A stretch of DNA of 64,000 nt. Source: Adlercreutzia caecimuris B7 (GTDB taxonomy: Bacteria > Actinomycetota > Coriobacteriia > Coriobacteriales > Eggerthellaceae). The notes below the pieces were generated by a model. That model made no database searches. It was not told where the DNA came from and saw nothing but the letters and a program-made list of their open reading frames with translations. The position numbers and the translations under genes are program-made. The number at the start of each line of letters is the position of its first letter. Position 1 is the stretch's first letter. Below are positions 42,379 through 46,523 of this stretch, piece after piece. The stretch lies in contig NZ_KE159646.1 of NCBI RefSeq assembly GCF_000403355.2, forward strand, positions 2,431,960 through 2,495,959, given 5' to 3'.

Positions 42379-42454
42379 GGGGCCTTAGCTCAGCTGGGAG
42401 AGCGCATGGCTGGCAGCCATGAGGTCAGGGGTTCGATCCCCCTAGGCTCCACCA
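42379..42454 (+). tRNA. tRNA-Ala (anticodon GGC)
   Basis: All arms fold: acceptor GGGGCCT with AGGCTCC, D arm GCTC/GAGC, anticodon stem CATGG/CCATG with loop CTGGCAG, T arm around GGTTCGATC. The anticodon is GGC, which reads GCC alanine codons. The CCA end is encoded. A 13-bp hairpin terminator AGAAGCCGGGTCA/TGACCCGGCTTCT follows. Confidence 0.95.
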
Positions 42455-42497
42455 ATAATTTCAGAAGCCGGGTCATGTGACCCGGCTTCTTGTATGT
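42436..42497 (+). repeat. tRNA-Ala 3' end plus hairpin, first copy of a 62-bp repeat
   Basis: This segment (the last 19 bases of the tRNA, then the terminator hairpin) recurs at 42605-42666 with three changes, all in the hairpin loop region. Confidence 0.85.
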
Positions 42498-42604: not shown

Positions 42605-42666
42605 ATCCCCCTAGGCTCCACCAATAATTTCAGAAGCCGGGTCATAGGGCCCGGCTTCTTGTATGT
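42605..42666 (+). repeat. Second copy of the tRNA-Ala 3' end and hairpin
   Basis: 59 of 62 bases match 42436-42497. Only the last part of the tRNA is duplicated, so it is not a tRNA gene. This is the arrangement left by site-specific integration into a tRNA 3' end. Confidence 0.8.
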
Positions 42667-42784
42667 GAAGCCCCGCTAGGGAGCCGTCTTCTGTGGCGGC
42701 GGGATGCCCCAGTCGCCGTCCACTGGCCCTTTGCTGTGGCGTCGACCGCAGAGCGCGGGTCTTCGGGGCTTGTTTTGAGACGTT

Positions 42785-42901
42785 CTCTCGCCGCTCTCGA
42801 GCGGGCTCTCTGTTTGCTCTCGAAAATGCTCTCTAATTACTCTCGAAAATGCTCTCTATAGAGAGTAAAATATAGAGAGCAGATAGAGAGCAACGAGAGA
42901 G
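42785..42901. promoter_or_regulatory. CTCTC/GAGAG array upstream of the AlbA-domain gene
   Basis: CTCTC starts at 42785, 42794, 42806, 42817, 42829, 42840 and 42852, and GAGAG at 42861, 42875, 42886 and 42895. Intervals are 9, 12, 11, 12, 11, 12 and then 14, 11, 9, so the whole array is roughly mirror-symmetrical and in phase with the DNA helix. It ends 32 bases before the start codon. Its first 39 bases belong to a 56-bp direct repeat that starts at 42768. Confidence 0.7.
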
Positions 42902-42933
42902 TGGGCGGGTAGGCGCTCAGAAAAGGTGGCTGC

Positions 42934-44634
42934 ATGACTCCAGAAGCGCTTGAAAGCACGGTAGCAAGGCTGCGCAAGCAGGGATGTGATGACGCCCAGG
43001 TGGAAGTCAAAGCGTGCAAGAGCGCTTTGTCGAAAGACATTTGGGAGAGCGTGAGCGCTTTTGGGAATACACGTGGCGGCACGCTCATTTTGGGTCTGGA
43101 GGAAAACGAGGGCTTCAAACCTGTTGAGGGGTTCGATCTCAACAAAGTGCGCGACCAGTTCATCTCCGGTTTGGAAGACGGAGGGAATGCCAAACCCAAA
43201 ATAGCCAATATGCCCCAGTACGACTTGGAGCGCATGGATTTTGAGGGCGCGCAGGTTCTCGTCGTAGAGATTGCGGAGGTTGAGCCTCGGTTCAAGCCGT
43301 GCTACGTGCAAGCGAGGGGGCTGTCGAACGGCGCTTTCAAGCGCGTCGACGATAAGGATATCAAGCTTTCCTCAACCGAGATTTTCGAGCTGAAGCACCT
43401 GCTGGAGCCTTCTCCCGCCGACCGCGAGGCAGTGGGCGGCTCGTCTCAAGATGATCTTGACGCGACACTGACTGACCGCCTGCTCGCCCGCGAAAAGGAG
43501 CGCGGGTCGCGTGCGCTGCGCGGCACCGATGACCGCAATGTGCATCTCAAGCGGCTGGGCGTTGTCACCGCATCGGGTGCCCTCAGCTTTGCAGGTCTGA
43601 TGAGCCTGGGGGCCTATCCCCAGGAGTTTTTTCCGAAGCTTATCGTGGATGTGACGGTTCATCCGGGAATAGAGAAGTCCGAGCCCGATGGCCCTCGTTT
43701 TCTCGACCGTGTTCTGTGCGAGGGGCCTATCGGCGAAGCAGTGGACGAGGCGGTGCTCGCGGTGGCGCGAAACCTGCGAACGTATTCCTATGTAGAGGGC
43801 ACGGGTCGTCGCGATGAGCTGGAGATTCCCCGCGATGTTTTGCGCGAGGCCATAGCTAATGCCGTCATTCATCGCGAGTACTCGAGCTCATTCGTCGGCC
43901 AGGCGGTATCGGTAGATGTTTTCGCCGATAGGGTTGAGATTACCAATCCCGGTGGGCTGTGGGGCGGCAAGACGCTGGAAACGCTGGGCGATGGGCAATC
44001 ACGCTGCCGAAACAGCTCCCTTATGCAGCTTGCGTCGCGCATCGACTATTCCGCCGAGGGTGCCCCGGCGGAAGGGCAGGGATCGGGAGTGCGTCTCATG
44101 ATTCGAGAGATGCGGTCGCATGCTCTCGATGAGCCGCGTTTCGAGGCGGGAATAGATTACTTCAAGGTTGTTTTACAAAGAGGCGGGATGGAGATAGCCG
44201 CGAATCGGGAATGGATGGGCACGGTGACAGCGCGGCCCTTGAGCTCGGTTGAGCGCGCGGTGCTCTTAGAGGCGCGGCGCGAACAGGCAATTTCCGTCAA
44301 GGAGCTTCATCGACAACTTGGCTACGACTCCGACGAGATTAGAGAGGCCCTCAAGACGCTCGAGGAAGATGGCCTGATAAAGCCCTTGTCGAAGGACAAA
44401 TATGAGTTCGCGAACAACTCTGGTAAGTCGTCAAGATCGGTTTCGGCCCGGGAGGCCATTCTCGATGTTTTGGGAGAAAGCGACGAGCCTGTTGGTATGC
44501 GAGACATAGAGGAGAAAACGGGCAAGAAGATCGCTACCCTGAGAGCGCAGATGGCGCGTATGGTAGATGAGGGCATCGTCGTTCCCACGGCGCCCCCGAC
44601 TGACCAGTCAAGAAAGTACATGCTGAAGAGGTAG
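42934..44634 (+). CDS. AlbA_2 (Schlafen-like) / ATP-binding transcriptional regulator
   Basis: The 566-residue protein starts with an AlbA_2 domain (VEVKACKSALSKDIWESV, then SAFGNTRGGTLILGLEENEG), followed from about 285 by a GHKL-like ATP-binding region (LREAIANAVIHREYSS, VDVFADRVEITNPGGLWGGK) of the HATPase_c_4 type. The C-terminal 130 residues look like two winged helices (LEARREQAISVKELHRQLGY; VLGESDEPVGMRDIEEKTGK). The family is usually called a putative transcriptional regulator, and some members act in phage defence. AAAAGGTGG precedes ATG 42934. The gene lies alone between two CTCTC/GAGAG arrays, which it probably binds. Codon use is less GC-rich than in nearby core genes. Confidence 0.85.
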   Translation: MTPEALESTVARLRKQGCDDAQVEVKACKSALSKDIWESVSAFGNTRGGTLILGLEENEGFKPVEGFDLNKVRDQFISGLEDGGNAKPKIANMPQYDLERMDFEGAQVLVVEIAEVEPRFKPCYVQARGLSNGAFKRVDDKDIKLSSTEIFELKHLLEPSPADREAVGGSSQDDLDATLTDRLLAREKERGSRALRGTDDRNVHLKRLGVVTASGALSFAGLMSLGAYPQEFFPKLIVDVTVHPGIEKSEPDGPRFLDRVLCEGPIGEAVDEAVLAVARNLRTYSYVEGTGRRDELEIPRDVLREAIANAVIHREYSSSFVGQAVSVDVFADRVEITNPGGLWGGKTLETLGDGQSRCRNSSLMQLASRIDYSAEGAPAEGQGSGVRLMIREMRSHALDEPRFEAGIDYFKVVLQRGGMEIAANREWMGTVTARPLSSVERAVLLEARREQAISVKELHRQLGYDSDEIREALKTLEEDGLIKPLSKDKYEFANNSGKSSRSVSAREAILDVLGESDEPVGMRDIEEKTGKKIATLRAQMARMVDEGIVVPTAPPTDQSRKYMLKR

Positions 44635-45104
44635 GACCCCTCCTTGCAGATCGTTACTGCAGCTTGTTTCGGGGCGTTCTCTCGCCGCTCTCGAACGGGC
44701 TCTCTCCTTGCTCTCGATACAGCTCTCGATATGGCTCTCTATATCGAGAGGCATATCGAGAGGCATATCGAGAGACCCGAGGGCGGTTTTCGAGAGCGAT
44801 TGTCTCTCGCTGCTCTTTTCTGAAAAGAGTTTTCCCAGGTAAATAGTGACTTCATTCCTTAAGATTTCAGCTAGTTTACAGGAATATGTGCGTTTCGTTG
44901 CGGGGGTGTGCGGTCTTCGTGAGTCGCTTTTTCATGGAGAAGGCCATTGACATAATATCGACCTGACCACACTAAGGGTACACTATCTCGTTGCGCTCTG
45001 GCGATGATGGGGCACAGGGCCCGGTTGGGAGGGCCGTGCTTTGTGGCAGTACAGGGCTAGGATGCGCGGACATGGGGTTCGCGCAGCGTTCGAAAGGTTG
45101 AGGG
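44635..45104. other. Intergenic region after the AlbA-domain gene
   Basis: It contains the second CTCTC/GAGAG array, the TTTTCCCAGGT motif at 44830-44840, and an AT-rich stretch to about 44985 that should hold the promoter of the foldase gene. No gene is seen. Confidence 0.5.
44679..44783. promoter_or_regulatory. CTCTC/GAGAG array downstream of the AlbA-domain gene
   Basis: CTCTC starts at 44679, 44688, 44700, 44711, 44723 and 44735, GAGAG at 44746, 44758 and 44770, and a variant GAGGG at 44779. Intervals are 9, 12, 11, 12, 12 and then 12, 12, 9. The 56 bases from 44662 match 42768-42823 at 50 positions, in the same orientation. Confidence 0.7.
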
Positions 45105-46523
45105 ATGAAATTTACCTCGTTTGTTAAGAGCTCTGCTCTGAAGCGCGTGGGGGCGGTTTCGCTCACGCTCGCTCTCGGTGCCGGCCTGGTGGGCTGCGGC
45201 GGCAACGGTGCCGGCGGTGCTGTGGCCGCTACCGTCAATGGCCAGAACATCATGGAGCAGACCGTTACCGATTATGTGGCCCAGTTCCGCGCCGATAGCG
45301 GCCTGGAAAGCGACGAGGCCTGGGGCGAGTGGATGGTGGCCAACAACTACACCCCCGAGACGGTGCGCGAAGAGGTTATCGAGTATTACGTGAAGCAGGA
45401 TCTGTACGATCAGGCCGCGGCTGAGTACAACGTTGCCGTGGAGCAGGCCGATATTGACGAGGCCATGGAGCAGACCAAGGCCATGTTCGAGAGCGACGAG
45501 GCCTTCCAGCAGGCCCTCGAGGCCAGCGGCATGACCGAGGAAACCTACATCGAGACCAACCTGCGCCCCCGCCTCATGGAGTCGAAGCTGGCTGAGGCCG
45601 TGGCGAATGCCGAGAACGGCGGTGGCGATGAGGCCCTGCTCGCCCAGGCTCAGTCGGCAAGCGACCAGTTCAACGGCGCGAAGCGCACGAGCCACATCCT
45701 GCTGACTGCCGAGGGCGACGAGACCGACGAGGCTCTGCAGGCCCGCGCCCAGGCTCTGATCGACCAGATTAACGCTGGCGAGATCTCCTTCGAGGACGCC
45801 GTGTCCCAGAACTCCCAGGACAGCGGCTCCGCTGCCAAGGGCGGTGATGTGGGTTGGAACGTGCTCAACAACTTTGTGACCGAGTACACCGATGCGGTGG
45901 CCGGCCTGAACAAGGGCGACATGACCGCTTCCCCGGTGAAGAGCGAGTTCGGCTACCACATCATCAAGTGCACCGATGTCTTCGAGGTTCCCGAGGGCGG
46001 CATTACTTCCCTCGATCAGCTTCCCACGGAGTTCGTGGATGCCCTGCGCAATATGCAGTCCGCCGCGGCCGGTCAGAACTTCACCACCTGGTATCAGGAG
46101 TATCGTGAGAACGCCGAGGTGACGGTGAACCCGATGCCCGAGGGCCTGCCCTACGCCATCGACATCGCCCCGTATCAGAAGGCCGCTGAAGAGAAGGCCG
46201 CTGCGGCCGAGGGCGAGCCTGCTGCCGATCCGACTGCGCAAGACGCTCAGGCTGCTGAGGGCGACCAGGCTCCCGCCGAGGGCGATGCCGCTGGTGCCGA
46301 CCAGGCTCCCGCCGAGGGCGACGCCGCTGGTGCCGAGGGCGATACCGCTCCCGCCGAGGGCGACCAGGCTCCCGCCGAGGGTGACGCCGCTCCCGCCGAG
46401 GGTGCCGACCAGGCTCCCGCCGAGGGCGATGCCGCTGGTGCCGACCAGGCTCCCGCCGAGGGCGACGCCGCTGGTGCCGACCAGGCTCCCGCCGAGGGCG
46501 GCCAGGCTCCCGAGCAGCAGTAA
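45105..46523 (+). CDS. PrsA/SurA-type peptidyl-prolyl isomerase lipoprotein
   Basis: The 472-residue protein has a lipoprotein signal (VSLTLALGAGLVGCGGN), an N-terminal SurA_N-like helical domain (VNGQNIMEQTVTDYVAQFR), and a parvulin domain (TSHILLTAEGDE, then SFEDAVSQNSQDSGSAAKGG and SEFGYHIIKCTDVF). It would help exported proteins fold outside the membrane. The last 90 residues are a repeat tail of units such as APAEGDAAGADQ, rich in Ala, Glu, Asp and Pro, not part of the enzyme. A terminator follows. The giant surface protein encoded next is an obvious possible client, which is inference. Confidence 0.88.
   Translation: MKFTSFVKSSALKRVGAVSLTLALGAGLVGCGGNGAGGAVAATVNGQNIMEQTVTDYVAQFRADSGLESDEAWGEWMVANNYTPETVREEVIEYYVKQDLYDQAAAEYNVAVEQADIDEAMEQTKAMFESDEAFQQALEASGMTEETYIETNLRPRLMESKLAEAVANAENGGGDEALLAQAQSASDQFNGAKRTSHILLTAEGDETDEALQARAQALIDQINAGEISFEDAVSQNSQDSGSAAKGGDVGWNVLNNFVTEYTDAVAGLNKGDMTASPVKSEFGYHIIKCTDVFEVPEGGITSLDQLPTEFVDALRNMQSAAAGQNFTTWYQEYRENAEVTVNPMPEGLPYAIDIAPYQKAAEEKAAAAEGEPAADPTAQDAQAAEGDQAPAEGDAAGADQAPAEGDAAGAEGDTAPAEGDQAPAEGDAAPAEGADQAPAEGDAAGADQAPAEGDAAGADQAPAEGGQAPEQQ
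46250..46513 (+). repeat. Tandem repeat tail of the foldase gene
   Basis: Units such as GACCAGGCTCCCGCCGAGGG followed by CGATGCCGCTGGTGC recur with small changes, encoding APAEGDAAGADQ-like units. The longest identical blocks are about 36 bp. Repeat number could change by recombination. Confidence 0.75.

What the first reader, a model, noticed from the sequence alone, without database searches (positions are those of the whole stretch)
42768..44783. AlbA-domain gene between two helically phased CTCTC/GAGAG arrays
Both sides carry arrays of CTCTC at 9, 12, 11 and 12 base steps that mirror into GAGAG. The 56 bases starting each array match at 50 positions. Such regular, symmetric arrays suggest cooperative binding by the gene's own winged helices, or the ends of a mobile cassette. 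I know of no described element with this form.
Basis: partly seen in the sequence, partly recalled or inferred. Interest (0 to 1): 0.65.

Follow-up and report, generated by a model that had tools for sequence, protein, structure and literature searches.

The report
Mobile Schlafen gene flanked by arrays
A bacterial gene related to antiviral Schlafen proteins sits between two matching arrays of short, evenly spaced DNA sites, and relatives in other bacteria suggest that this array-gene-array block is passed between genomes as one compact unit whose short word differs from lineage to lineage.

Summary
Arrays of 12 CTCTC/GAGAG words flank a 566-aa gene (42934-44634): left 42785-42901, right 44679-44808. 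The 56 bases from 42768 and 44662 match at 50 positions. The protein is SLFN_AlbA_2 + HATPase_c_4 + two winged helices.

It is a family trait. 45 of 105 relatives pass an array test, against 4 of 113 control ORFs. The word differs by lineage (CTCTC, AACACT, TTCCCA, TCACTC, CTTATTCA); half of the steps are 11-13 bp. All 45 have an upstream array; 16 have a downstream one too.

Two-sided units (1.5-2.1 kb) look like discrete transferred blocks. In three groups DNA homology between units fades within tens of bases of the arrays. In six genomes the array pattern occurs at two places only, a unit length apart. Five congeners lack the gene at this locus. In 5 of 6 groups the two arrays of a unit are more alike than arrays of related units, with slight overlap. 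A gene-less array lies between convergent genes in three congeners.

Best reading: a self-binding, self-regulating Schlafen gene spreading as a minimal cassette. Binding, way of moving and defence role are inferred.

The parts
42785..42901 (.). Left array: 12 CTCTC/GAGAG words, plus-strand half then minus-strand half; a promoter-like site lies inside it (42843-42871)
42768..42833 (+). Left copy of the direct repeat (66 nt, 86% identical to the right copy)
42934..44634 (+). Schlafen-type gene, 566 aa: SLFN_AlbA_2 - linker - HATPase_c_4 - two winged helices
42991..43368 (+). SLFN_AlbA_2 domain (aa 20-145); D19 just before it and E24, K26, E57 in it are invariant in the 12-member alignment
43897..44175 (+). 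HATPase_c_4 domain (aa 322-414)
   Evidence: weak fold matches to PDK-type ATPases
44239..44403 (+). First winged helix (aa about 436-490); absent from 9 of the 12 aligned members
44446..44589 (+). Second winged helix (aa about 505-552), present in all 12 aligned members; proposed reader of the array word
44662..44727 (+). Right copy of the direct repeat
44679..44808 (.). Right array: 12 CTCTC/GAGAG words; homology to the gene-less locus of congener G003 resumes at 44829

Best explanation
It is a minimal one-gene cassette: array, Schlafen-type gene, array. The protein's C-terminal winged helix reads the word of its own arrays, and many copies load side by side on one face of the helix (11-13 bp steps). 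On the upstream array, near the promoter, this would set the gene's own expression. The second array, in two-sided units usually a direct copy within about 120 bp of the stop codon, would let the two nucleoprotein stretches touch (looping) and marks the end of the unit. The block spreads between genomes and lands at unrelated places, and its two arrays are kept alike by being copied at insertion or by later gene conversion. Recombination between the arrays would remove the gene and leave a solo array. The AlbA_2 domain is probably an RNA-cutting Schlafen effector gated by the ATPase domain, so the gene is most likely a phage-defence gene. Shown by comparison: the arrays, their presence across the family, word diversity, unit borders in three groups, absence from this locus in congeners, likeness of the two arrays, a solo array. 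Inferred: protein binding, autoregulation, looping, enzyme activity, defence role, way of moving.
For: Array in 45 of 105 relatives (16 with a downstream array, 12 with two upstream, 0 downstream only) against 4 of 113 control ORFs from loci L031-L109. 194 of 389 steps are 11-13 bp. Paralogues of one genome differ (G011: L025 ATGATG, L028 GTACAA, L030 AAAAAT). Word similarity follows winged-helix similarity after allowing for the rest of the protein (42 proteins, partial r 0.18-0.20, 0 of 2000 permutations). Three genera of two orders share the unit at 84-87% DNA and 91-93% protein identity, with homology fading near the arrays, beside different neighbours (for L076 and L077, for L082); likewise L035/L119 and L015/L017. 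In L015/L017 both arrays are conserved (75-90% in most bins) while the DNA between array and gene is 40-70%. Array pattern at two places per genome, a unit length apart, in 6 of 6 genomes. Five congeners keep the neighbourhood without the gene. Within-unit array identity 0.94-1.00 against 0.57-0.96 between units in four groups. Solo array between convergent genes in 3 of 9 genomes of the genus.
Against: No binding or expression data. The word tracks the N-terminal part of the protein more than the winged helix (partial r 0.32-0.39), so much of the match is ancestry. 60 of 105 relatives show no array by my test, and 17 of 45 show just one. Eleven of the 12 'two upstream' loci are Collinsella. 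L133, with two upstream arrays and none downstream, shares homology with other Collinsella from its outer array to about the stop codon, so a right array is not needed to bound a unit. Third codon positions of the cross-order units are only 65-71% identical, so that transfer is not recent and neutral flanks could have faded. Other near-identical pairs (Collinsella, L012/L121) share flanks too and look like one locus in sister species. No recombinase, no target duplication. L035/L119 break the likeness rule, and L035 and L122 score higher inverted. The solo array's surroundings are 94% identical between G000 and G005 (purF end 96%, other congeners 88-91%), so it may have spread by exchange of that stretch.
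Confidence: 0.6

Rival explanations
1. Purely regulatory. The arrays are operators of an autoregulated gene; the second array arose by local duplication and is kept for looping or tighter repression. The gene is passed on by ordinary recombination, and the unit ends at the arrays only because nothing beyond them is under selection.
For: All 45 array-bearing loci have an upstream array and none a downstream array alone; a second array may lie upstream instead (12 loci). A promoter-like site lies inside the left array. L133 is bounded by an array on one side and about the stop codon on the other. Synonymous sites of the cross-order units are well diverged.
Against: Left and right arrays are alike in the spacers too, and in 5 of 6 groups more than arrays of related units, which selection on words alone does not give, though gene conversion could. 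In L076, L077 and L108 the next gene converges on the unit, so there the right array is not the neighbour's operator.
Confidence: 0.25
2. Self-mobile element of a new kind. The Schlafen protein itself cuts or joins DNA at its arrays (which can form hairpins) and drives insertion, copying the array at each event as LTRs are copied; solo arrays are the relics.
For: Likeness of the two arrays of a unit; solo array without gene; spacers mirror-complementary beyond the words (268 of 472 positions, 154 expected); the four arrays tested fold well as single strands (z -4.5 to -6.0); no other plus-strand ORF of 80 aa or more in the unit.
Against: No second near-identical copy in the match lists; no target duplication; Schlafen nucleases are known to cut RNA (recalled); no circle or excision product seen.
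Confidence: 0.12
3. RNA structures: the arrays are paired terminators or attenuators, and the regular words are a by-product of the hairpins.
For: Strong folding; 7 terminator-like sites in 44600-45100 against 0.6 expected, two of them in the end of the right array.
Against: Helical 11-13 bp spacing with a different word in each lineage and symmetric use of both strands fits DNA binding better.
Confidence: 0.03

Closest known systems
Bacterial Schlafen RNases fused to a minimal histidine kinase and winged helix, found in BREX loci (PMC12839542, passages read; it cites preprint 10.1101/2025.07.24.666596 on anti-phage defence, not read)
   Same: Same domain order
   Different: Here the gene stands between arrays beside a tRNA gene and a PPIase gene; no arrays appear in the passages read
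TrlG of Photorhabdus (PMC7554251, 12 of 14 passages seen)
   Same: AlbA_2 plus HATPase_c_4; growth-restricting gene
   Different: Part of a three-gene operon; the word palindrome does not occur in the text and no arrays appear in the passages seen
Cooperative DNA-array binders such as BldC on direct repeats or oligomeric winged-helix RdfS (PMC5859096, PMC11963761; search listing and start of abstract only)
   Same: Repeated short sites suited to side-by-side binding by small HTH domains
   Different: Those proteins lack AlbA_2/ATPase domains, and their sites are not matched repeats around their own gene (recalled)
LTR elements and REP/RAYT units (recalled)
   Same: Matched repeats around one or few genes, solo copies; palindromic ends
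   Different: No reverse transcriptase or HUH transposase domain found here; low copy number

Membership tests
SLFN_AlbA_2 / HATPase_c_4 protein family | Both Pfam domains above their curated cut-offs | tested here: met
   46.8 and 78.6 bits against cut-offs 25.3 and 26
Schlafen nuclease | Three acidic catalytic residues in the AlbA_2 domain | tested here: inconclusive
   D19, E24 and E57 are invariant in 12 members; the region matches Schlafen chains only weakly (profile E 0.001 and 0.009; Foldseek E 0.0017); equivalence to the catalytic residues is recalled, not aligned
Transposon (DDE type) | Transposase gene, terminal inverted repeats, target duplication | tested here: not met
   No transposase domain; repeats score higher direct than inverted in 18 of 20 units picked by eye; no target duplication
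Integrase-driven integrative element | Tyrosine or serine recombinase inside the unit | tested here: not met
   Single Schlafen-type gene; other ORFs of 80 aa or more in the unit are antisense
LTR-like unit | Direct terminal repeats more alike within a unit than between units, plus solo copies | tested here: inconclusive
   Holds in 5 of 6 groups with slight overlap in one, fails in L035/L119; one solo array; analogy only
Known anti-phage system (PADLOC) | Strong full-length match to a system model | tested here: not met
   Best hit a pAgo model, 34 bits, E 1e-9, over about a third of it; most others are winged-helix hits
Autoregulated operator array | Protein binds the array at its own promoter | not testable with these tools
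   Position and word covariation only

The most novel reading that the evidence does not exclude
A new class of mobile element: a single Schlafen-type protein that is at once cargo, self-regulator and mobility protein, bounded by direct arrays of its own binding word that are re-copied at each insertion, with word and winged helix diversifying together so that many mutually blind versions coexist.
Probability: 0.15. Interest if true: 0.9.

Novelty: new variant of a known kind. Interest (0 to 1): 0.64.

Why it matters
Bacterial Schlafen-ATPase-winged-helix genes are widespread, but in the papers searched I saw nothing on how the stand-alone ones are controlled or spread. The arrays give a testable handle: they predict the DNA word each protein reads, allow protein/word pairs to be compared across dozens of species, and mark the borders of what moves. 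If the unit moves by itself it would be a very small mobile element in need of a new mechanism.

Tried and rejected
Chance or simple repeat: rejected. Arrays as operators of the neighbouring gene: rejected where the neighbour converges on the unit (L076, L077, L108) and for the solo array between convergent ends. A dispersed regulon: not seen in six genomes, where the exact pattern (three words, no mismatch, so decayed arrays would be missed) occurs at two places only; in 60 relatives of the window the hits outside G000, G002, G005 and G044 (18) do not exceed the hits of the backwards control pattern in all 60 (25), and G000 and G005 also have a few isolated hits. That control is weak, as CTCTC reads the same backwards. 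Target duplication: none. Phage or plasmid carriage: 9 of 72,556 plasmid records, 9 of 50,697 phage records and 7 viral loci, mostly distant or partial. Exact empty site by L119's flank: the site is hypervariable in its genus and gave no clean junction. Integration of this unit through the duplicated tRNA-Ala end: part of that duplication is also in congener G003 without the gene (L135), so it looks older. One search's shared-word list contains some chance words and repeated flanks, and one search has likely false hits (L050, L085; for L110 it picked a GC word instead of its CTCTC arrays), so I rely on the control rate. The 20 units, and the words or array borders, were chosen by eye. Rows dropped: of 124 genes found, 114 were kept (identical proteins or flanks under 150 bp dropped) and 105 (under 440 aa, short flanks, or same first 200 aa dropped).

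Full report
WHAT IS THERE. The two arrays are as described. Left: 42785-42901; right: 44679-44808; twelve CTCTC/GAGAG words each, running from CTCTC into GAGAG. The repeat copies start at 42768 and 44662 and match at 50 of the first 56 bases. The 8 matches of CTCTC-N7-CTCTC in the window all lie in these arrays; 0.13 are expected. Between them is one gene, 566 aa, with SLFN_AlbA_2 (aa 20-145), HATPase_c_4 (aa 322-414) and two winged helices. The AlphaFold model (pLDDT 82.5, pTM 0.59) matches the C. diphtheriae protein 3lmm (E 1e-23) and the AlbA_2 domain 2kyy (E 1.5e-4), and more weakly Schlafen 13 (5yd0, E 0.0017) and PDK-type ATPases (E about 0.015); a profile finds Schlafen chains only weakly (E 0.001 and 0.009). 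The genome is most likely an Eggerthellaceae: G280, of the same family, is identical over 4.7 kb to Slackia isoflavoniconvertens DSM 22006 (the family name of Slackia is recalled).

FAMILY SURVEY. With a first test (exact 6-mers, 350-bp flanks, 100 shuffles) 56 of 114 loci had an upstream cluster, 17 a downstream one, and 27 a word shared by both sides, at 1 in 100 or less. With a second test (5-mer cluster of at least 5, above all 20 shuffles) 45 of 105 loci had an array: 17 one upstream, 15 one upstream and one downstream, 12 two upstream, 1 two upstream and one downstream, 0 downstream only. The same test on 113 control ORFs from loci L031-L109 gave 4, none with two arrays. Loci are not independent: 11 of the 12 two-upstream loci are Collinsella. 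Of 389 within-array steps, 194 are 11, 12 or 13 bp. Words include CTCTC/GAGAG, AACACT, CTTCCCA, TCACTC, CTTATTCA, CTTAAC, TGCGAC and others.

WHO READS THE WORD. Proteins with like C-terminal winged helices have like words: for example LSRTAVQ with TTCCCA/CCCAC, GGVRR or GTVRR with AACACT, LSRSTI or LSRSAI with CTTAAC (by eye). For 42 proteins the partial correlation of word with winged helix, given the N-terminal part, is 0.18-0.20 and is reached in 0 of 2000 permutations; but the partial correlation with the N-terminal part is larger (0.32-0.39), and among the 611 pairs with N-terminal identity under 0.45 the plain correlations are 0.16-0.18 (winged helix) and 0.23 (N-terminal part), so ancestry explains much. 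Paralogues in one genome carry different words (G011: L025, L028, L030). A promoter-like site lies in the left array (1 found, 0.1 expected); none passed the scan for L010.

A DISCRETE UNIT. Pseudoglutamicibacter albus, Brevibacterium mcbrellneri and Gleimia europaea (three families, two orders) share the unit at 84-87% DNA identity over about 1.65 kb and 91-93% protein identity, while third codon positions are 65-71% identical, so the transfer is not recent. In 20-bp bins identity falls to background (mostly 25-50%) within about 20-60 bp of the outer array edges; the same holds for L035/L119 and L015/L017. In the last pair the arrays are 75-90% conserved in most bins although the DNA between array and gene is 40-70%. 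Neighbour genes differ: AA_kinase/Lyase_1 in L076, DUF2268/Beta-lactamase in L077; in the AACACT group GH1/ADH (L066), ClpB/tRNA_edit (L070), Abhydrolase_3/Aminotran_4 (L108). In six genomes of these two groups the exact array pattern occurs at two places per genome, a unit length apart, and the control pattern nowhere. In 20 two-sided units, picked by eye, the length is 1.5-2.1 kb, the arrays score higher as direct than as inverted repeats in 18 (not L035 and L122), and the outer flanks show no target duplication (common word 3.85 against 3.83 between units). Other closely related pairs (most Collinsella, L012/L121) share flanks as well and look like one locus in sister species.

INSERTION AT THIS LOCUS. 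In five congeners (G001, G002, G003, G006, G007) the neighbourhood is kept without the gene; four show both the Mrp gene and tRNA-Ala upstream of the PPIase gene, while in G003 the contig starts inside the interval. In G004, G005 and G008 the Mrp and PPIase genes are on different contigs or about 10 kb or more apart, so they do not bear on this. Homology to G003 resumes at 44829, about 20 bp beyond the right array; the left junction cannot be placed to better than about 160 bp. In G005 the related unit (65% protein identity) sits elsewhere. Its left end starts at the first CTCTC, within a few bases of a sequence conserved in G001 and, by eye, G003; about 1.4 kb that G002 has between the same flanks is missing there.

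LIKENESS OF THE TWO ARRAYS. Within-unit identity of left and right arrays is 0.99 and 1.00 in L015 and L017 (0.82 between them); 1.00, 0.94, 0.98 in L066, L070, L108 (0.73-0.91 between); 0.98, 0.95, 0.95 in L076, L077, L082 (0.84-0.96 between, so one value overlaps); 0.96 and 1.00 in L068 and L072 (0.57-0.81 between); 0.68 and 0.78 in the window and L010 (0.50-0.64 between). L035/L119 is the exception: within 0.69 and 0.81 direct (0.94 inverted in L035), left-left 0.94. Stretches are short (30-132 columns). So the arrays are mostly copied or converted as DNA, spacers included. A gene-less array lies between the convergent 3' ends of purF and eamA in G000, G005 and G002 (gene names from my reading of the sequences). 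It is missing from that place in G001, G003, G007 and G008; G006 has a different neighbour there; in G004 the place was not found. G002 has no relative of the gene at E 1e-20. The solo array shares the gaaaatg spacer with the window's left array. Its surroundings are 94% identical between G000 and G005 (purF end 96% there, 88-91% in other congeners), so the stretch may have been exchanged between species.

HAIRPINS. As single strands the four arrays tested fold far better than shuffles (z -4.5 to -6.0). Mirror positions in spacers are complementary at 268 of 472, 154 expected, while successive spacers in one arm agree at 110 of 226 (27 arrays). This fits paired sites longer than the word, palindrome-correcting mutation, or a role for hairpins; it does not decide.

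LITERATURE. In eight searches (listings and starts of abstracts seen) nothing listed pointed to such arrays; no bioRxiv preprints are held. PMC12839542 (passages) reports Schlafen-kinase-winged-helix RNases in BREX loci of at least 1017 taxa and cites a preprint on defence by bacterial Schlafens (not read). PMC7554251 (12 of 14 passages) describes TrlG, an AlbA_2-HATPase_c_4 protein behind temperature restriction of growth.

VERDICT. Most likely: a self-binding, self-regulating Schlafen gene that spreads as an array-bounded cassette. Binding, regulation, mechanism of movement and defence function remain to be tested.

Noticed in passing
window 42436-42497 and 42605-42666: The 3' end of tRNA-Ala with its terminator hairpin is duplicated (62 nt, 95%). 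The second tRNA end and the stretch before it are also in congener G003 without the Schlafen unit (L135), so the duplication looks like an older event.
   Followed up: partly
L060 (Thermophilibacter mediterraneus), both sides of the gene: By eye, the relative is bracketed by two copies of what reads as a tRNA 3' end with its terminator, with short palindromic GGAAGTTAC-like arrays on both sides.
   Followed up: no
L022, upstream and downstream of the gene: By eye, a relative with a TACAAA/GTACAA array upstream is flanked by a direct repeat of roughly 100 bp that includes AAACGTACG words.
   Followed up: no
own genome G000, contig C1: 2254363, 2341663, 2319886, 2046195: Four more HATPase_c_4 matches in the same genome (one under the cut-off); the one at 2253421-2254659 (L027) has a different upstream word cluster (ATTTTA).
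   Followed up: no
window 45105-46523: The downstream PPIase-like lipoprotein has a long low-complexity C-terminus of PAEGD/AAGADQ repeats.
   Followed up: no
L148 (G005), L153 (G002), L165 (G000), between purF and eamA: The solo array differs in the number of CTCTC/GAGAG units between species, so arrays gain and lose units.
   Followed up: partly
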